Of a DNA stretch of 64,000 bases, positions 15,168 to 52,468 are shown in pieces. The notes beneath the pieces are model-generated. The model did not search any database. It was given only the letters and a program-made list of their open reading frames with translations, and was not told the DNA's origin. Every line of letters begins with the position of its first letter. Within the stretch, counting starts at the first letter, position 1. Source of the stretch: a virus; the IMG/VR virus record IMGVR_UViG_3300035698_017305, positions 1 through 64,000 of that record; one strand, written 5' to 3'. Both the position numbers and the translations under genes were made by a program.

Positions 15168-16082
15168 TCAGTCGAGCCAGAACACTCCACCAGGACCAGT
15201 GAAGGCACCGGAAGCCTCTGCCCCTACCTCATTGTTCCGGATGACGTGGAACCATTTACGCCCCAACTTGAGGGGTGCATGGTCGGAATGGGTCACACGC
15301 CCTCTTACGAACACTTCCTGGGGACGTACACTGAATCCGTGCTTGAGCCGGTAAGCTTCCGGGATGGTCCTCACGATTTCAGCCGCCTTGTGCGGATTAC
15401 CCCCCGGTCCAATCGGTTCACCTTTGTGGATGAGGTGAGGTTCATCAGCCAGGACCCTCTCCAGGCTCTTCTGCCGTTCCTCATTCAGAGGGAGGAAGAA
15501 CCATTCACCCTGCCTCTTGGTACCCTTGCCAGTGGGTCCATCGGCCAGAGTCAAGGTGGTTGGTTTCAGGCTTACATGGGCATCCTTCACGGAAGTCCCT
15601 TTGATGAACTGAGCGATGAAAAGCTGACGTTCATCAACCCCCATCAGGAACTTGCGGGTGCCCCCTCCAACCTTGGTCTGCCTCCTCTGAACTTGGATGG
15701 AGGACTTTTCGCAGAACTGCTCTTTGCAGATCAGGTTCTTTTCCTTGACAGTGGGGTTGTGGTCCATGCGATGGGTGCGATGGGTGTTGCCGGACACATA
15801 CACATCCCACACGGTCGTGAGCTCTCCCTCTTCTTTGACCAGGAGTGTCAACTGGCGCAGAGATTTGTCAGTGGACATTATCGTAATATTAGCGATCCCA
15901 GGCCACACGCGGAAGACTTCACCACGAGTGGACTTGTGCTTCTTGGAGAACTTACGATTGATGTCGATCTGGAACTGATCCTCGTTGAAAGCCCTCAAGG
16001 GCTTCTGGAGAACCTGGATCTTAAGTCCGGCACGGTCAAAACCTTGCCGAATAACGTGTGCTGCTGTTACTGTTGCCGTCAT
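15168..16082 (-). CDS. Phage protein with RQGEWFFLP and RGRVTHSDH motifs
   Basis: A 304-residue protein. Two motif blocks stand out: KRQGEWFFLPL near residue 185 and VRGRVTHSDHAPLKLG..WFHVIRN near residue 265. Similar blocks occur in uncharacterised phage and bacterial proteins; I cannot name the family. His/Asp clustering in the second block could form a metal or catalytic site. The start at 16082 follows AGGAGGTGG. It ends in its own terminator. Confidence 0.7.
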   Translation of the reverse strand: MTATVTAAHVIRQGFDRAGLKIQVLQKPLRAFNEDQFQIDINRKFSKKHKSTRGEVFRVWPGIANITIMSTDKSLRQLTLLVKEEGELTTVWDVYVSGNTHRTHRMDHNPTVKEKNLICKEQFCEKSSIQVQRRQTKVGGGTRKFLMGVDERQLFIAQFIKGTSVKDAHVSLKPTTLTLADGPTGKGTKRQGEWFFLPLNEERQKSLERVLADEPHLIHKGEPIGPGGNPHKAAEIVRTIPEAYRLKHGFSVRPQEVFVRGRVTHSDHAPLKLGRKWFHVIRNNEVGAEASGAFTGPGGVFWLD

Positions 16083-16106
16083 TACCACCTCCTGGTTAGT
16101 ATTGTT

Positions 16107-16991
16107 CTAATCGAACCTATCTCTCCTACGCATCTTCTTCTTCAACTGGGCCATGTGGTCCTCCAGTCTCTTCTCAGCTTCTTTGACCCTATCCTCAGCA
16201 TCTTTGAGCCTAGCCGTCTTAGCGTCTATTCTCTGAAACTCAGGCATGGGCATGGGCGCTCTGGGTAAACCATATCCTCTTCGGCTGCTGACGGGGGGTT
16301 CTATGACATTTTGGAGTTCGGAGTGTATACATGGGTTTCCAATTACCGCCCACAACGCCTTACCTTCAGTCTCCCATCTCCCCTTTTGCTTGTCCGCAAA
16401 CTCTCTCAGGGACTCTGGGGACTCAACGGAGTAGTTGTCAAACCGGTAGAAGTAACGCCACTTCCAGTGGTCGCCTTCCATATAGTATTCCCCAAACCCA
16501 AAGGTCTTGATCCGGCCCCAGTACTTCTTGCTGATGATGTTCCGGGCTATGTCAGCCTCTGGTCTTCCAAACTCAGGCTTAACCAGCATGCCGGTGTGTA
16601 TAGCTCCGATATATCCACCCTTTGTTTTGTACACACATGCTATGTGAGCACCAGCACCACTGTCTAATGGAGTGTGAAAGGAGACTCGGAACAGGCACTT
16701 GTCTTTGTATAACTTGGGTGTGAGGTAATACTTGAACCATATCGCTGCATCCTCACAGTCACCACCTCTGTCCTGATCCGTTTCTTCCACTGTTTTGGGG
16801 TAGCCTCTCCCCACTTCATCAAACTGGTATTCCAGGATTAGGTGCCAGTATAGGAATAGTGTCCAGTCTGTCCCTCTCGTCTCCGCACTGAAAAAGTTAC
16901 AGTATACCCACTCGTAAACCCAGGATATGGGTGATCGCACCACATACCAGATCTTCAGTAGGTATTCCATTTGGTTTCTGTTTAGGGTCAT
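16107..16991 (-). CDS. Transglutaminase-like (papain-fold) protein
   Basis: A 294-residue protein. The core has the Cys motif GGDCEDAAIWFKYYL near residue 88 and a downstream His motif AGAHIACVY near residue 120, the pattern of transglutaminase-like thiol enzymes. The C-terminal 40 residues form a charged coiled coil (DAEDRVKEAEKRLEDH). Members hydrolyse or cross-link peptide bonds; whether this one acts on host proteins, cell wall or a Ubl conjugate is unknown. It is translationally coupled (ATGA) to the HD protein upstream. Confidence 0.65.
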   Translation of the reverse strand: MTLNRNQMEYLLKIWYVVRSPISWVYEWVYCNFFSAETRGTDWTLFLYWHLILEYQFDEVGRGYPKTVEETDQDRGGDCEDAAIWFKYYLTPKLYKDKCLFRVSFHTPLDSGAGAHIACVYKTKGGYIGAIHTGMLVKPEFGRPEADIARNIISKKYWGRIKTFGFGEYYMEGDHWKWRYFYRFDNYSVESPESLREFADKQKGRWETEGKALWAVIGNPCIHSELQNVIEPPVSSRRGYGLPRAPMPMPEFQRIDAKTARLKDAEDRVKEAEKRLEDHMAQLKKKMRRRDRFD

Positions 16992-17578
16992 GGGTATTCT
17001 CCGCATACTTTGAACAAGTCATCTAGTTCCTTCCAGGCGGCCTCTCCTATGCCAGTGTCTAAGGCTTCCCGGAATTTCTTGTGTTCCTTGTGGTACATAA
17101 GCAATTTGTGGTGGGAGTCGGCGCGGGATCGCCGAACATTAGCTATCCTGTCACATAACTTCAACCATGTAGCTGTGGGGTGCCCATCTATTTTCAGATA
17201 GGTCTTCTCATGTCTCTCTTTACGGTTACGCCCCGGTTCATCTGTAACTCTCCATACCGCTTCAGCCACTGATGGACCGAACCAAAACAGTACATCCAGT
17301 TGGGTGACGTTTGTGTCTTCCACTATGTCGTGGAGGTAGGCGCATATGCGTACAAGTATGGGTAGGTTAAACTCGCGGACAATTGAGTCCACATCTTCCA
17401 GGTGGCAGTAATAAGGTTCCCCGTGTCCGTACTCTTGACCTCTATGACACGACTCTGCCATTTCTCTGGCGAGTTGTAGGAACGCTTTATCTGGGGTGGG
17501 TATTGTGCAGAAGACTGATGCAGGCAGGCTGGATCTTGTCCAGACATCCAATGGATTGCAGTTTGGTATGAGAGTCAT
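16988..17578 (-). CDS. HD-domain (p)ppGpp hydrolase-like protein (SpoT/MESH1 type)
   Basis: A 196-residue protein. HD-type metal motifs occur in SpoT/MESH1 order: PYYCHLEDV, ICAYLHDIVEDT (the HD pair) and KLCDRIANVRR. The single-domain size matches small alarmone hydrolases, which remove pyrophosphate from ppGpp and so can dampen a stringent response during infection. No synthetase domain is present. The start ATG is in a TAATG overlap with 17578-17808. Confidence 0.8.
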   Translation of the reverse strand: MTLIPNCNPLDVWTRSSLPASVFCTIPTPDKAFLQLAREMAESCHRGQEYGHGEPYYCHLEDVDSIVREFNLPILVRICAYLHDIVEDTNVTQLDVLFWFGPSVAEAVWRVTDEPGRNRKERHEKTYLKIDGHPTATWLKLCDRIANVRRSRADSHHKLLMYHKEHKKFREALDTGIGEAAWKELDDLFKVCGEYP

Positions 17579-17808: not shown

Positions 17809-17832
17809 TGTATTCTCCTATGGGTGGGTAAT

Positions 17833-17906
17833 GCCCGTGGAGGGATTTGAACCCCCGACACAGAGTACTAGAAGCTCCTGCTCTAACCAGACTGAGCTAC
17901 ACAGGC
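17833..17906 (-). tRNA. Predicted amber suppressor tRNA, anticodon CTA
   Basis: A complete 74-nt cloverleaf: acceptor GCCTGTG/CACGGGC, D stem GCTC/GAGC, anticodon loop TTCTAGT (T33, anticodon CTA) and T arm GGGGG-TTCAAAT-CCCTC. The anticodon stem has a C31-A39 mismatch and a G-T pair, so it is weaker than usual. CTA pairs with UAG. The charged amino acid cannot be read from sequence. Confidence 0.8.
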
Positions 17907-17910
17907 TTAT

Positions 17911-18033
17911 GGCGGCGGGAGGAATTGAACCTCCAACCTTCCTAGTCCGTCCAGTGTTCCCAAATCAACAGCATTTGACTACGTGTTGTTTGAAGGACGC
18001 CAAGGATGCATCTACCAATTGAGCTACACCGCC
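17911..18033 (-). tRNA. tRNA-like gene with about 50-nt insertion in the anticodon region
   Basis: The acceptor stem (GGCGGTG/CGCCGCC) and T arm (GGAGG-TTCAATT-CCTCC) are intact and the D arm nearly so (GATGC in place of GAGC). The anticodon arm is expanded to about 60 nt. The insert can fold on its own (GTCC/GGAC closing pair and an inner AACA..TGTT pairing). If TTGGCGT is the loop start the anticodon would be GGC, but this is uncertain. It is either an intron-containing, decayed or recombined tRNA. Confidence 0.55.
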
Positions 18034-31514: not shown

Positions 31515-31686
31515 ATATTGTTTCAGGCAGGAGGCAACCTACCGAGGGACTGTAACTCCCGAGGGTGTGCCAAGGGCGCAGGCGCTGCGGGATATCAGCT
31601 CCCTCAACTTTGTCTCCGGAGACTCTATTGAGTTTGCTCTAGACAGTATCATCTTAGGAATCGAACCTAAGCTCCATGCCCTTGTA

Positions 31687-32040
31687 TGGTGGAGGTGGCG
31701 GGAATCGAACCCGCGTCCGCGAACACTTACCGTGCTCATCTACGTGTGTGTCCAACCTTTCTATCCTGAAAGACATGGTTGGCAACGCTTTCAGGACCCC
31801 ACTGCCTTACCCGTGTGGGGAACACCGGGACGGGTTTTGTCAGCTATTACCCGATACTGACAACCGGGGAGTCTAAGGTGACGTTCTAGCCTACAGCGAC
31901 TCTCCGTAGGTAGACCGCGCTACTCTCTAAGCAGCGATGGGAAGTTGATTTTCGGCAACTATCTAGGTTTGTTCTGTAACGTAGAACATCCGACACGCAA
32001 AGCACGACTCAATTATTCCCGTCGAATCCAGGTCACCCCC
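31687..32040 (-). ncRNA. ssrA: Transfer-messenger RNA (tmRNA)
   Basis: The 5' end GGGGGTGACCTGGATTCGAC and 3' end GGTTCGATTCCCGCCACC + TCCACCA are canonical tmRNA termini; GGGGGTG pairs with CACCTCC and CCA is encoded. The tag frame at 31927-31956 reads Ala-Glu-Asn-Gln-Leu-Pro-Ile-Ala-Ala and stops with TAG. It follows TAGTT, where the resume codon is expected. GC-rich helices downstream fit the pseudoknot ring. tmRNA rescues stalled ribosomes and tags the product for proteolysis. It lies 7 bases after tRNA-Glu on the same strand. Confidence 0.93.
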
Positions 32041-32046
32041 ATAAGA

Positions 32047-32118
32047 GCTCGGGACGGGACTTGAACCCGCGATCACCAGATTGAAAGTCTGGTGGCTTAA
32101 CCACTGGCCTACCCGAGC
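32047..32118 (-). tRNA. tRNA-Glu(TTC)
   Basis: 72 nt. Acceptor GCTCGGG/CCCGAGC, anticodon stem CCAGA/TCTGG, loop CTTTCAA, T loop TTCAAGT. It is directly upstream of the tmRNA. Confidence 0.93.
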
Positions 32119-32520: not shown

Positions 32521-33576
32521 TTATGCGGTAGTAAAGATCTGCTGAATCCTCTCATCTTCCCAGTATACTTTGGGTGGTTCCTTGCCAACCCACGGTGGGG
32601 GCAACTTTTCAAGATGAGAATGTCCTAGCAGAGCTTCATCATAAGGTCTGTCAAAGTCTAGACCTTCTAAGGCTCTCCATACAGGGAACAAATCCCGTAG
32701 GAATTGCTTGACCATGTAGCGTAGAGCCATGTTGTGCATGTGCCCCTTCCAACCCTTCTCATCCTTACGGGCGAGCAGGTCCTCCCTATGGGCAAGCCTG
32801 TAACGGTATTGATCATAGATTTGTCTGTAGCGTTTGTGACCACACTTAATCAGGTTAGCGGACATCACCCCGATCAACTTAGTTTTGAGCGTAGGGTTGA
32901 AGGTGATAGCCTTCTTTGTCTTCGTCTCACCCGCCGCATTAAGGTACTCCACATCAACCAAGTGCTCTGCTCTACGACTCCTGCCTAGCCCGTCCTTTGC
33001 AACGTCTAGACCTGCATACTTCCACAGACTGGATACGTGCCGTGCTTTGTGGATGTCAAACTCGGCGACTATGATACCACCCATGGCGGGGCCAATACCA
33101 CTGATACGTTCCAAGTATTCATTCCAGATAGGAAACTCTTCCAGCCCCATCCTGATAAGGCTTAGTTGTTCCCTTTCAACCCGTTCCAGCGCGACGTAGT
33201 GTTCCACTAGTTTGAGGGTGGCATAGTCTCCTATAACCCCGTCCCCTTCAAACTTGTGTGGTCTGATCCGTACAACGCCGTCTGTGATTCTCTTGTACGA
33301 CAGCTTCAGTGTCTTGAGGGTAGACTTGGCTTCCCCGCTGAGCTCATCCTTTTCAGCCTTCCCTGGGATCTTTCCGTTCTTGACCTTCCAGCTCTCTACC
33401 ACTCGGTTCCCCAGACCTATCCGTGTTTTCTGGATGTCCAGGTTCCCTCTGACCTGTGCTCTGAACCTCATTCGAGGTCCATCTGGGTCCACCACTGGGT
33501 CTGGAGGAGGAGCTTTTGCCTTCGGTTTGACCTTCGGTTTGACCTTGGATACCCTGGATTCTGCTGCTTCTCCCAT
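32521..33576 (-). CDS. IS110-family C-terminal (Transposase_20)-like protein
   Basis: A 351-residue protein. A basic, Pro-rich disordered start is followed by a helical region, then a helix-hairpin-helix-like block (ISGIGPAMGGIIVAEF), WKYAGLD and a long helical end. This is the order seen in the C-terminal domain of IS110/IS116 transposases; the N-terminal DEDD catalytic domain is missing, so it is unlikely to transpose. It is the last gene of the Ubl cassette and may be a DNA-binding partner or target. Confidence 0.65.
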   Translation of the reverse strand: MGEAAESRVSKVKPKVKPKAKAPPPDPVVDPDGPRMRFRAQVRGNLDIQKTRIGLGNRVVESWKVKNGKIPGKAEKDELSGEAKSTLKTLKLSYKRITDGVVRIRPHKFEGDGVIGDYATLKLVEHYVALERVEREQLSLIRMGLEEFPIWNEYLERISGIGPAMGGIIVAEFDIHKARHVSSLWKYAGLDVAKDGLGRSRRAEHLVDVEYLNAAGETKTKKAITFNPTLKTKLIGVMSANLIKCGHKRYRQIYDQYRYRLAHREDLLARKDEKGWKGHMHNMALRYMVKQFLRDLFPVWRALEGLDFDRPYDEALLGHSHLEKLPPPWVGKEPPKVYWEDERIQQIFTTA

Positions 33577-33585
33577 AAGTTCCTC

Positions 33586-34239
33586 CTACAAGGTGGTCAT
33601 AGTGGCGAAGTCCATACGCGTCACCTTGTTGAATGTTCCACCGTTGATGTGCTGTTTGATAACGCCTGTGATAATACACGCGATACCAAATGCTGTATAG
33701 ATGATTGCTCTTTCCGTGCACGGTGCAGGAGTAGCCTCACTACTGGGATAGAGATTCTTTTCGTACATCTCTATGTCATCTGGATCGGTGGGGTCCACAG
33801 CGTACACCTCAGCATACTCTGCTCCCATGCGGGCTTCGATGAATAGGGGGATGTTGAAGTTGGACTTGCAGGCATTCCATATCTTGATACGGGTATCCAT
33901 TGAGTCAACTGCTACCACCACGGTACCTTCCAACTTTTGACTGGTGTACCACATAGGTTTGGTAGTGAGGGACGTGTCATGGAAGCACTTGACGATTTCG
34001 TTCATCGCCACCACCTTCATCTTACCCAGGTCTTCCTTCCGGAACATTTGGTTGGGGAGGTTGTGTGCTTCCACCTTATCGTTATCCCATACCGTCACCT
34101 TGCTTACACCCATCTTAGTGAGGGCAAACGTGGTGGGTGAACCTATTCCACCGACTCCGATGATGTGGACTTCGTAGTCTTTGATGGCGTCGGCACGGAG
34201 AATTCCGCTTTGACGGCAATAGATATCGCTTGCGAGCAT
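33586..34239 (-). CDS. E1/ThiF-family adenylyltransferase, Ubl cassette 1
   Basis: A 217-residue protein. The nucleotide-binding loop GVGGIGS is at residues 28-34, VWDNDKVEAHNLPNQ follows and a candidate catalytic Cys is in APCTERA (C174). E1/ThiF enzymes adenylate the C-terminus of a ubiquitin-like protein and pass it to Cys. The size is that of a minimal single-domain E1. Its start lies 97 bases inside the JAB gene in another frame; the N-terminal RQSG supports the long start. Confidence 0.88.
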   Translation of the reverse strand: MLASDIYCRQSGILRADAIKDYEVHIIGVGGIGSPTTFALTKMGVSKVTVWDNDKVEAHNLPNQMFRKEDLGKMKVVAMNEIVKCFHDTSLTTKPMWYTSQKLEGTVVVAVDSMDTRIKIWNACKSNFNIPLFIEARMGAEYAEVYAVDPTDPDDIEMYEKNLYPSSEATPAPCTERAIIYTAFGIACIITGVIKQHINGGTFNKVTRMDFATMTTL

Positions 34240-37997: not shown

Positions 37998-38006
37998 CTT
38001 ATGGCA
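37998..38006 (-). promoter_or_regulatory. Promoter-like element of the Ubl cassette (TGCCATAAG)
   Basis: The minus-strand CCTGCCATAAGTGGGTC is 48 bases upstream of the Ubl gene. It matches the recurring extended -10 box and is divergent to the plus-strand glycan operon. Confidence 0.55.
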
Positions 38007-38028
38007 GGCTTTTTCTTATATTCTCTAC

Positions 38029-38038
38029 ATGCTATACT
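38029..38038 (+). promoter_or_regulatory. Plus-strand extended -10 (TGCTATACT)
   Basis: TGCTATACT is 23 bases upstream of the glycan-operon start. The -35 region is T-rich (CTTTTTC). Confidence 0.5.
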
Positions 38039-38060
38039 CGGGGCGGAGGGTTATAATTCA

Positions 38061-40916
38061 ATGATTTATGTTCTCACATCTCGCCCTAGCGGTAAGGGGT
38101 GCAAGGCTATGCTCCAACGGGGTAAGTCTTTAGGCATTCCCATCAAAGTCATTACAGGCAACACCGCAATGAGTCCAGGTGACGTGGTATTTGTATACGA
38201 AGCCAAGAAGCCAGCACTCAACACTATCAAGAACAGAACTGATATCACTGTAGTTAATGGTGTTAGGTACAACAAGCAGGGCCAGTATAAGATTCTTGCC
38301 CCGGGCGGTGTACCTGTACCTAACTGGGCTCTGTTAAAGCCGGGCCAGAAAAACCGTTTCGATACAGTGGCTTTCCCCGCTATCATGAAACCCAACGTCG
38401 GGGGATACGCCCGTGGGGTTAAGCTGGTACCCTCAGCAGATAAGGCTAAGTCTATAAGGCTCAAGGAGAATATGATTCTCCAAGAGTATGTGGACTGTAA
38501 GGGGGAGTGTACCAGAGTCCTGATGGTTGGGGACGACCCAGCTATTGTTGTGACCAGGATAGCGCATGATGGGTACATAGCGGCATACGACTTTGGTCGG
38601 AAAGGTAAGTTGGAGTTCACACCCCTGACGGACAAAGAGCTGGAGATATGTATAAAGGCGTGTAAGCTTCTAAAGATCGAGATTGGTGGGGTAGATATCA
38701 TCCGGGACTCCAAAACAGGAGAGCCCTATATACTGGAGGTGAATCACTTCGCAGTACCCTTCTACCTCAAAGAGATGTATAAAGACGCTACAGATACTAT
38801 ATTGAGGTATCTACACAAATTGGAAAAGCCGAGAACTACCAATATCAAAAGGACGAAGGCCGTGCCTACTAAAACCTCTATCAAACCAGCTAAGCCGAGA
38901 GTGCTGTGGATCGTAGATAAGCCAGGGTGGTCCCATGACAACAAGACTGAGGCTATCACCCGTCAATTATCTGATGAGTTTGACTTTGATAAACAGTATT
39001 TGTACCAGTCAGGCAATGTCTACGACTACTCTAAGTACTCACACGTACACATCTCACTGTGGTATTGGCCCGTTCAGCATAAGGACTTCCCAAGACCCCC
39101 CGCAGACATCACTACAACTACCATCAGTAGCTGGCAGTCCTGGGAGAAGTATGGGAGGGCCAAGACAGCGGCTCATGTGAAACATCTGTATGGTGGAGCT
39201 GTTTGTGTGAACCGAGAGCTGTTTAATGAATTCTCTCCTATCATACCTAGGACCTACCACTGCCCCAATGGGGTAGATACCGAAATGTTTACACCAGGAC
39301 CCGCCACCTCAAACCCAAAGTTCACGGTAGGGTTTGCCGGTAACCCCTGGATGCACAAGGGGCGCAAGAAGTACTTCAAGCTGATTAAACCTGCGTTGGA
39401 CTCTTTGAAGAACGTGACTCTACGCACCGCTCTGGGTAAGTACCCATACAAGGACATAAAGCCTCATGCTGAGATGCCCGCGTTTTACCAATCACTGGAT
39501 GCTTACGTCCATGCCGCTGGGGGCAAGTGGGATACAGCCCCTAACCCAGTGTTGGAGGCCGCTGCCTGTGGAATCCCGATAATTATCTCCCCAGTGGGTG
39601 ATTGGAAAGAGTTGTTTGTGGATGGTGAAACCGCGTTGGTGCTGCCTACTGACCCCAATCCTAAGGATATAGTTAATGCTATCAATAGGTTAGCTGGGGA
39701 TAAGAAGCTACAGCGCAAGCTAGCTATTGGGGCTAGGTTCGTAGCAGAGAAGCTTAGCTGGAGTGGGTTGGCTGAGAAGTATAGAAAAGTGTTTAAGGCG
39801 CACAACAGGCCACGGGGAGTTATAAAACCATCCAAGACTAGAACAGGGCTATCCTTAAAGGACAGGTTGGGTAGAAGGGATGCTATGAAGACAACTCTAC
39901 CCACGTTAAATAGTAAGATTAAGAAGTCCCCCAAGGCACAGGTCATAAAATCAAAACCACGCATAGGATTGCTAGTTGATTATAAAGGGTGGGCCTGGGA
40001 TATCAATGCCCATAACATAGCTAAGCACCTATCTCAGTACTACGACTTTGACATATACTATACATCCGGTGGGGGTGGTGGTCGAATACTGTTCCCCGGA
40101 CTAGACCTAGTGCTGTGTTTCAGAATAGATGAGACGCAACGACGAGGTGGTTACGTTAGAAGGATACCTGCCCATAAAAGGTTAGCATCCATATCCAGTT
40201 TTACCAACAAGGTGGCCAAACGGATACTGTCTGATAACAAGGAAGGGGCAAAGTTCCTACGTAACAGTTATGCTGGGGTGGGGGCTGTGTCCAGGGAACT
40301 CGCCGACTTCATTAAACCCTACCACAGACGCGTATACTACATCCCTAGGGGGGTTGAGACAGACCATTTCTTACAGGCTCCTAGGCCAAACGGTAAGAAG
40401 CTAGTGGTGGGTTGGGTAGGGACCCGGGACAGGGCCAACAAAGTGTACCCAGCATTTGAATTAGCTAAGAAGCATCTCGGTGACAAGTTCATTTGGTCTC
40501 CCAGGACAGAGAGTAGGGGGAACCCGGGCAGTCCCAAGTTGACCCATGAGGATATGGCCACCTACTACAGTAAGCTGGATGTGCTAGTTCACACAGCGTG
40601 CCATGACGGCACTCCTAACCCTATCTTTGAAGCTGCCTCATCTGGAGTCTGCATCGTTAGCACCCCGGTCGGGTCAGCCCAGGAGTTTATGCGGGATGGG
40701 GTTAACTGTCTAAAGCTAGAAAATGGGGGCAAGAGGGACATCGCAAGGTCTTTGGTAACTGCGTTAGAAAAGCTAGATGGCAACAGAGAACTAGTTGATA
40801 GGTTCGGTAGGACTGCCTCCAGAGAGATGAGAGATAATTGGGACTGGGAGAAGATCATACCGTTGTACAAACGGATGTTCGACCAATCCCTAACCCGAAG
40901 AAAGGGAGTAAGGTAA
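38061..40916 (+). CDS. ATP-grasp ligase fused to two GT4-type glycosyltransferases
   Basis: 951 residues from the ATG at 38061; GGAGG lies 11 bases upstream, and the earlier ATG at 38001 lacks a ribosome binding site. Residues 1-265: RimK-like ATP-grasp (PAIMKPNVGG, LQEYVD, GGVDIIRD...ILEVN). Residues about 275-590: a first GT-B domain (CPNGVD, VGFAGNPWMHKG, PNPVLEAAACGIPIIIS). Residues about 625-945: a second GT-B domain (YIPRGVET, VGWVGT, TPNPIFEAASSGVCIVS). An amide-ligase plus two sugar transferases in one chain suggests assembly of a decorated glycan or glycopeptide. Confidence 0.85.
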   Translation: MIYVLTSRPSGKGCKAMLQRGKSLGIPIKVITGNTAMSPGDVVFVYEAKKPALNTIKNRTDITVVNGVRYNKQGQYKILAPGGVPVPNWALLKPGQKNRFDTVAFPAIMKPNVGGYARGVKLVPSADKAKSIRLKENMILQEYVDCKGECTRVLMVGDDPAIVVTRIAHDGYIAAYDFGRKGKLEFTPLTDKELEICIKACKLLKIEIGGVDIIRDSKTGEPYILEVNHFAVPFYLKEMYKDATDTILRYLHKLEKPRTTNIKRTKAVPTKTSIKPAKPRVLWIVDKPGWSHDNKTEAITRQLSDEFDFDKQYLYQSGNVYDYSKYSHVHISLWYWPVQHKDFPRPPADITTTTISSWQSWEKYGRAKTAAHVKHLYGGAVCVNRELFNEFSPIIPRTYHCPNGVDTEMFTPGPATSNPKFTVGFAGNPWMHKGRKKYFKLIKPALDSLKNVTLRTALGKYPYKDIKPHAEMPAFYQSLDAYVHAAGGKWDTAPNPVLEAAACGIPIIISPVGDWKELFVDGETALVLPTDPNPKDIVNAINRLAGDKKLQRKLAIGARFVAEKLSWSGLAEKYRKVFKAHNRPRGVIKPSKTRTGLSLKDRLGRRDAMKTTLPTLNSKIKKSPKAQVIKSKPRIGLLVDYKGWAWDINAHNIAKHLSQYYDFDIYYTSGGGGGRILFPGLDLVLCFRIDETQRRGGYVRRIPAHKRLASISSFTNKVAKRILSDNKEGAKFLRNSYAGVGAVSRELADFIKPYHRRVYYIPRGVETDHFLQAPRPNGKKLVVGWVGTRDRANKVYPAFELAKKHLGDKFIWSPRTESRGNPGSPKLTHEDMATYYSKLDVLVHTACHDGTPNPIFEAASSGVCIVSTPVGSAQEFMRDGVNCLKLENGGKRDIARSLVTALEKLDGNRELVDRFGRTASREMRDNWDWEKIIPLYKRMFDQSLTRRKGVR

Positions 40917-51839: not shown

Positions 51840-51986
51840 TCTGGGGTAGCGAGTCTGTAGGCCCAATTGATTTGTTAGTCTGATCCGTAGTCAGATGCCT
51901 TAACCACTTGGCCACATATGATTTCTCACATGATGGGATTCGAACCCACGTTAAAATGTATGGCCCACATGTAGGGCTACCCTAGA
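51840..51986 (-). ncRNA. Y-like RNA element 2, permuted tRNA-like domain
   Basis: 11-bp outer stem and inner GGCC pairing. The insert reads on the minus strand: T arm (GTGGG-TTCGAAT-CCCAT), acceptor 3' strand CATGTGA, a GAAA tetraloop, acceptor 5' strand TCATATG, D arm, and anticodon arm TCTGA-CTACGGA-TCAGA (ACG). The tRNA is thus opened between its variable region and T arm. Confidence 0.82.
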
Positions 51987-51999
51987 ACTGTATAGTGTT

Positions 52000-52149
52000 T
52001 TTCGAGAGTGCTAGTCGAAGGACCCATTGTAAAACTGGATGCTCTACCATTGAGCTACTTGGGCTCAAGCCCAAGACAGGAATTGAACCTGCGCCTTCCC
52101 CTTGGTATGGGACGTTTGTGTATGGCCCGTCTGTAGGGCACTCTCGAAA
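52000..52149 (-). ncRNA. Y-like RNA element 3, permuted tRNA-like domain
   Basis: Perfect 12-bp outer stem TTTCGAGAGTGC / GCACTCTCGAAA. Insert order: anticodon arm (CCC-ATACCAA-GGG, ACC by position), T arm (GCAGG-TTCAATT-CCTGT), acceptor CTTGGGC, TTGA loop, GCCCAAG, D arm. It is opened between the D and anticodon arms. Confidence 0.8.
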
Positions 52150-52330: not shown

Positions 52331-52468
52331 GGTGCGGCTAGCTAGTCGAGAGACCCATATTAGGTACACCGAGGTGGAATTGAACCACCGACTTTTTGCT
52401 TAATAGGCAAATGCTCTATCCAACTGAGCTATTGGTATGTATGGCCTAACTGTAGGGCTAACCGAACC
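52331..52468 (-). ncRNA. Y-like RNA element 5 enclosing a linear tRNA
   Basis: Outer stem 10 of 12 pairs, inner stem around GGCC/GACC. The insert is an ordinary-order tRNA at 52366-52438. Confidence 0.78.
52366..52438 (-). tRNA. tRNA or tRNA-like domain, anticodon ATT (Asn codon AAU)
   Basis: 73 nt. Acceptor ATACCAA/TCGGTGT (one A-C mismatch), D stem GCTC/GAGC, anticodon stem TTTGC/GCAAA, loop CTATTAA, T arm GGTGG-TTCAATT-CCACC. A34 is unusual for Asn, where GTT is expected, so it may be a mimic. Confidence 0.7.

What the first reader, a model, noticed from the sequence alone, without database searches (positions are those of the whole stretch)
31687..32040. Phage-encoded tmRNA with tag AENQLPIAA ending in TAG
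Both termini and tag frame are canonical. Phage tmRNAs are uncommon. The tag stop is TAG, the very codon read by the phage suppressor tRNA, so suppression could extend the tag (the next in-frame codons run on) and change protease recognition.
Basis: seen in the sequence. Interest (0 to 1): 0.7.

Follow-up and report, generated by a model that had tools for sequence, protein, structure and literature searches.

The report
Phage tmRNA gene, amber-ended tag
This virus of bacteria carries its own complete copy of a ribosome-rescue RNA, a known but uncommon kind of phage gene; its tag ends in the stop codon that the phage's own suppressor tRNA could read, but comparison with other phages gives no sign that this match is more than coincidence.

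Summary
The tmRNA is real. It lies at 31687-32040 on the minus strand of a 132.8 kb virus contig. ARAGORN and Rfam RF00023 find it (126.3 bits, full length). Three strong downstream pseudoknots stand; 0 of 1000 shuffles have three. The tag is AENQLPIAA, then UAG, in the conserved frame. It sits 4 nt behind a tRNA-Glu in an array of 16 tRNA genes, without SmpB or release-factor genes. A CUA-anticodon tRNA exists 14 kb away.

The suppression idea is possible but unsupported. UAG ends 24 of 122 phage ORFs as an ordinary stop. One suppression event would add 12 residues and meet UAG again. Among the other phages found with both a CUA tRNA and a tmRNA, 0 of 11 tags end in UAG. Phages without a CUA tRNA, and bacteria, also use UAG. 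The phage's CUA tRNA has an atypical anticodon loop (G37, U38).

Best reading: an ordinary phage tmRNA working with host SmpB and alanyl-tRNA synthetase. The tag most resembles Acidobacteriota tags, but a tree does not settle the host.

By-product: CUA-tRNA contigs carry tmRNAs more often than tRNA-bearing control phages (8/16 vs 1/15; 6/16 with one detector, p = 0.05, no phylogenetic correction). That deserves a proper survey.

The parts
31687..32040 (-). one-piece tmRNA (ssrA) gene, CCA encoded, 354 nt
   Evidence: ARAGORN; Rfam RF00023 126.3 bits full length; fold z -2.1
31927..31956 (-). tag reading frame GCC...GCT + TAG = AENQLPIAA*
   Evidence: aligned with bacterial tags
31869..31910 (-). 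pseudoknot, gene positions 131-172 (CCUACGG/CUGUAGG with GAGUC/GACUC)
31831..31863 (-). pseudoknot, gene positions 178-210 (UUGUCAGU/GCUGACAA with CGGGU/ACCCG)
31752..31797 (-). pseudoknot, gene positions 244-289 (GUCCUGAAAG/CUUUCAGGAU with CCAACC/GGUUGG)
32045..32118 (-). tRNA-Glu(UUC), 4 nt upstream of the tmRNA; probably co-transcribed
   Evidence: no sigma-70-like promoter between 31300 and 32600
17832..17906 (-). tRNA with CUA (amber) anticodon, loop UUCUAGU, C31xA39 mismatch, no encoded CCA

Best explanation
A bona fide phage-encoded one-piece tmRNA, made within the phage tRNA array and used in infection for standard trans-translation. Host alanyl-tRNA synthetase charges it, host SmpB and EF-Tu bring it to ribosomes stalled on broken messages, the stalled chain receives AENQLPIAA, host RF1 releases it at UAG, and host proteases degrade it. 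Shown here: gene, structure, frame, alanine determinant, no phage SmpB or RF gene found in the contig. Inferred: expression, use of host partners, degradation. The UAG stop is an ordinary variant, and the CUA tRNA is probably not a dedicated partner of it.
For: gene and pseudoknots; frame, extension; no SmpB, no RF1/RF2 domain; tags AENQLALAA, ADNQLALAA, ANEQLPLAA in Acidobacteriota; UAG stops in some bacterial tmRNAs; UAG ends 24/122 ORFs; 0 of 11 other CUA-tRNA phages have a UAG-ended tag; PMC9004378 and PMC7162821 for phage tmRNAs and proposed roles.
Against: No expression or function data. The RNA is divergent (at most 59% identical to any relative), so loss of function cannot be ruled out. 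PK1 is weak. No close relative was found to show conservation.
Confidence: 0.82

Rival explanations
1. The phage amber suppressor reads the tag UAG in infection, so that some tags become AENQLPIAA-X-RVARSTYGESL and lose the C-terminal -AA degron. This switches tagging from degradation to release without degradation.
For: CUA tRNA and UAG stop both present, with A after the UAG. Changing the E. coli tag end from AA to DD stabilises tagged proteins (PMC6207430).
Against: 0 of 11 other phages with CUA tRNA plus tmRNA have a UAG-ended tag. UAG also ends 24/122 phage ORFs, which would all be extended. The tRNA has G37/U38 where other phage CUA tRNAs have A37/A38, so its efficiency is doubtful. A second UAG follows after 11 codons.
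Confidence: 0.06
2. Suppressor tRNA and tmRNA form a functional pair in phages whatever the tag stop: the suppressor makes ribosomes run past stops to message ends, and the tmRNA rescues them.
For: tmRNA in 8/16 contigs of at least 40 kb with a confirmed CUA tRNA, against 1/15 tRNA-bearing control phages. SsrA copes with readthrough caused by suppressor tRNAs in bacteria (Ueda 2002, cited in PMC8012679).
Against: With the same detector the counts are 6/16 vs 1/15, p = 0.05, with no correction for relatedness; controls are isolates, the CUA set metagenomic. Several tmRNA phages with large tRNA arrays have no suppressor found (G010, G016, X1, Marzo, Calle_1).
Confidence: 0.15
3. The tmRNA is a decaying or decoy copy picked up from a host, without a role.
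For: Long branch, lower RF00023 score than the acidobacterial genes listed (126 vs 143-213 bits); a tRNA-fragment-like hairpin nearby.
Against: All functional elements, the frame and three pseudoknots are intact.
Confidence: 0.1

Closest known systems
Bacterial one-piece tmRNA, Rfam RF00023, nearest in tag to Acidobacteriota tmRNAs (ADNQLALAA, AENQLALAA, ANEQLPLAA)
   Same: tRNA-like domain with CCA, tag frame, pseudoknots, tag length and AENQL.../...LP.AA pattern
   Different: encoded by a phage; about 57-59% identical; tag ends PIAA and stops with UAG (mostly UAA in the bacteria sampled)
Phage tmRNAs: Bacillus phage G, Stenotrophomonas phage DLP6, Xanthomonas phage XacN1, Cellulophaga phage Calle_1, Streptomyces phage Limpid
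   Same: tmRNA in a phage with many tRNA genes; phage G, DLP6 and XacN1 also encode a tRNA with a suppressor anticodon
   Different: DLP6 and XacN1 have two-piece (permuted) genes and UAA stops; phage G has a UAG stop with a UUA-anticodon tRNA
Phage amber-suppressor tRNAs (Salmonella phage Arash, XacN1, DLP6)
   Same: CUA anticodon; the window tRNA resembles Arash's, including the GGAGC anticodon stem and C31xA39
   Different: window loop UUCUAGU instead of CUCUAAA; no encoded CCA

Membership tests
tmRNA (RF00023) | covariance-model match over the whole length above gathering score | tested here: met
   126.3 vs 47 bits, positions 1-374
tmRNA (RF00023) | tag frame with resume codon and stop at the homologous place | tested here: met
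tmRNA (RF00023) | pseudoknots (typically four) | tested here: met
   three strong ones, 0/1000 shuffles; PK1 weak
tmRNA (RF00023) | G3-U70 acceptor pair for alanine and CCA end | tested here: met
   GGGGGUG/CACCUCC, ACCA
tmRNA (RF00023) | SmpB-dependent tagging activity | not testable with these tools
   no phage SmpB found; needs an experiment
stop-codon-recoding phage (code 15, TAG=Q) | TAG inside genes, TAG absent as a stop | tested here: not met
   TAG ends 24/122 ORFs, extensions no longer than for TAA; no RF2
amber suppressor tRNA | tRNA cloverleaf with CUA anticodon | tested here: met
   decoding efficiency not tested

The most novel reading that the evidence does not exclude
Phages pair an amber-suppressor tRNA with a tmRNA as a module that first provokes and then cleans up readthrough; in this phage the tag itself ends in UAG, so the suppressor also sets the length and stability of the tag.
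Probability: 0.06. Interest if true: 0.7.

Novelty: new member of a known kind. Interest (0 to 1): 0.3.

Why it matters
It adds a structurally complete one-piece tmRNA from a phage with few known relatives. It also shows that the eye-catching stop/suppressor match is not a general pattern. The by-product, more tmRNAs among phages with CUA tRNAs than among control phages, would, if it survives a corrected survey, link two unexplained groups of phage translation genes.

Tried and rejected
TAG recoding: rejected. In-frame TAG joins 15168-17006 and 32521-34239: ordinary gene junctions with Shine-Dalgarno and ATG close behind the TAG. Near relatives of this phage: none in the phages collection by megablast of 30-50 kb; only distant portal-protein relatives (38-49% in IMG/VR, ~30% in Salmonella phage Arash); among those records only Bacillus phage G has a tmRNA over the cut-off. 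Same tag in other viral contigs: none. Host from the tmRNA tree: not resolved; the window sits on a long branch at an open fork with Zixibacteria, Bacteroidota and viral rows, so Acidobacteriota rests on tag likeness only. Enrichment of UAG tag stops in amber-tRNA phages: none (1/12 vs 3/15).

Full report
What is there. Window 31687-32040, minus strand, holds a complete one-piece tmRNA gene. ARAGORN reports it with tag AENQLPIAA*, and Rfam RF00023 matches it from the first to the last model position at 126.3 bits against a gathering score of 47. The record G000 is a 132,813-base virus contig, 49.8% GC. The RNA begins 4 nt behind tRNA-Glu(UUC), within an array of 16 tRNA genes that ARAGORN finds between 17.8 and 52.4 kb, all on the minus strand and all within the window. 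No sigma-70-like promoter was found around them, so co-transcription with the tRNAs is likely (inference).

Structure. The acceptor stem GGGGGUG/CACCUCC carries G3-U70, the alanine determinant, and CCA is encoded. The tag is GCC GAA AAT CAA CTT CCC ATC GCT GCT TAG, preceded by TAGTT. The stop lies at the place where most bacterial relatives have TAA. Downstream of the tag are three strong, non-overlapping H-type pseudoknots (gene positions 131-172, 178-210, 244-289); none of 1000 dinucleotide shuffles has three. PK1 is weak.

What lies behind the stop. Reading on gives UAG-RVARSTYGESL-UAG-ARTSP-UAG-TPRLSVSGNS-UGA. One suppression event adds 12 residues and then meets UAG again.

Is TAG special in this phage? 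TAG ends 24 of 122 ORFs of at least 100 aa (TAA 63, TGA 35), including long ones. The open stretch behind TAG stops (median 11.5 codons) is no longer than behind TAA (14). Two places where reading TAG would join two frames, 15168-17006 and 32521-34239, have a Shine-Dalgarno sequence and ATG close behind the TAG. No RF1/RF2 domain and no SmpB were found in the contig. The phage uses the standard code as far as can be seen.

The CUA tRNA. 17832-17906 minus folds as a cloverleaf with anticodon CUA in ARAGORN's model. It resembles CUA tRNAs of Salmonella phage Arash and of 16 viral contigs, sharing the GGAGC anticodon stem with a C31xA39 mismatch, but its loop is UUCUAGU rather than CUCUAAA and it lacks the encoded CCA. 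G37 next to an anticodon that reads a U-initial codon usually weakens decoding (general knowledge), so its suppressor strength is unproven.

Does the tag stop go with the suppressor? Eleven other phages with a CUA tRNA and a tmRNA were found: DLP6 (stop), XacN1 and G014, and contigs L335, L349, L363, L364, L366, L367, L368, L377. Their tag stops are UAA or UGA, never UAG. UAG-ended tags occur in G010, G011 and phage G, where no CUA tRNA was found (phage G has a UUA one), and in 5 of 52 bacterial tmRNA calls sampled, one of them a doubtful second call. With the window, 1/12 against 3/15: no association. The match in this phage is best taken as coincidence.

A by-product. Contigs were fetched by a CUA-tRNA anticodon-arm pattern. 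Of 16 contigs of at least 40 kb with an ARAGORN-confirmed CUA tRNA, 8 carry a tmRNA (L364 is the least certain, L366 and L377 were seen by ARAGORN only). Of 15 phage records chosen only for a tRNA-Arg, one does. One-sided Fisher p = 0.01, or 0.05 if only RF00023 calls count (6/16). Four of the CUA contigs without tmRNA are near-copies of the Arash type. Relatedness is uncorrected, controls are isolates and the CUA contigs metagenomic, so this is a lead and not a result. A possible reason has been described: suppressor tRNAs cause readthrough, which the SsrA system relieves (Ueda 2002, cited in PMC8012679).

Kinship and host. The nearest tags are acidobacterial: AENQLALAA in L053, isolate gp18 AA62, ADNQLALAA and ANEQLPLAA. 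Best identity to any tmRNA is 57-59%. The tree leaves the window on a long branch at an open fork. The host is therefore unknown, with Acidobacteriota suggested by the tag only. The portal protein places the phage far from known isolates (31% to Arash).

Verdict. A known kind of gene in a little-known phage: phage tmRNAs occur in 402 of 18,146 phage genomes (PMC9004378), and roles in keeping ribosomes free or sensing host state have been proposed (PMC9004378, PMC7162821). The suppression scenario stays possible but unsupported.

Noticed in passing
window 17910-18033, minus strand: A 124-nt tRNA-like RNA (Rfam tRNA 39.9 bits) directly before the CUA tRNA, with an extra ~48-nt hairpin in the anticodon arm; folds better than shuffles (z -2.4) and plain ARAGORN misses it.
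   Followed up: partly
window 51867-52064 and 52363-52438, minus strand: Two weak tRNA-like matches (25-28 bits) and a tRNA with anticodon AUU (rare A34) close together.
   Followed up: no
window 31640-31686, minus strand: A lone T-arm-like hairpin (CTTAGGTTCGATTCCTAAG) just downstream of the tmRNA, perhaps a tRNA remnant.
   Followed up: no
L202 8933-9369 (Bacillus phage G): An ochre-anticodon (UUA) tRNA lies 54 nt upstream of the phage G tmRNA, whose tag AKLNITNNELQVA ends in UAG.
   Followed up: partly
L377 6220-6718: In a 352-kb viral contig a two-piece tmRNA is followed 15 nt later by a CUA tRNA.
   Followed up: partly
L260 2625-3477 (Tunturiibacter phage Tunturi_4, Acidobacteriota host): A permuted tmRNA candidate, unannotated in the record, next to a short RF-1-domain protein gene.
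   Followed up: no
window 33586-34239 and 38001-40916: A ThiF-like (E1-type) protein, and a 971-aa RimK/ATP-grasp plus glycosyltransferase fusion, near the tRNA array.
   Followed up: no
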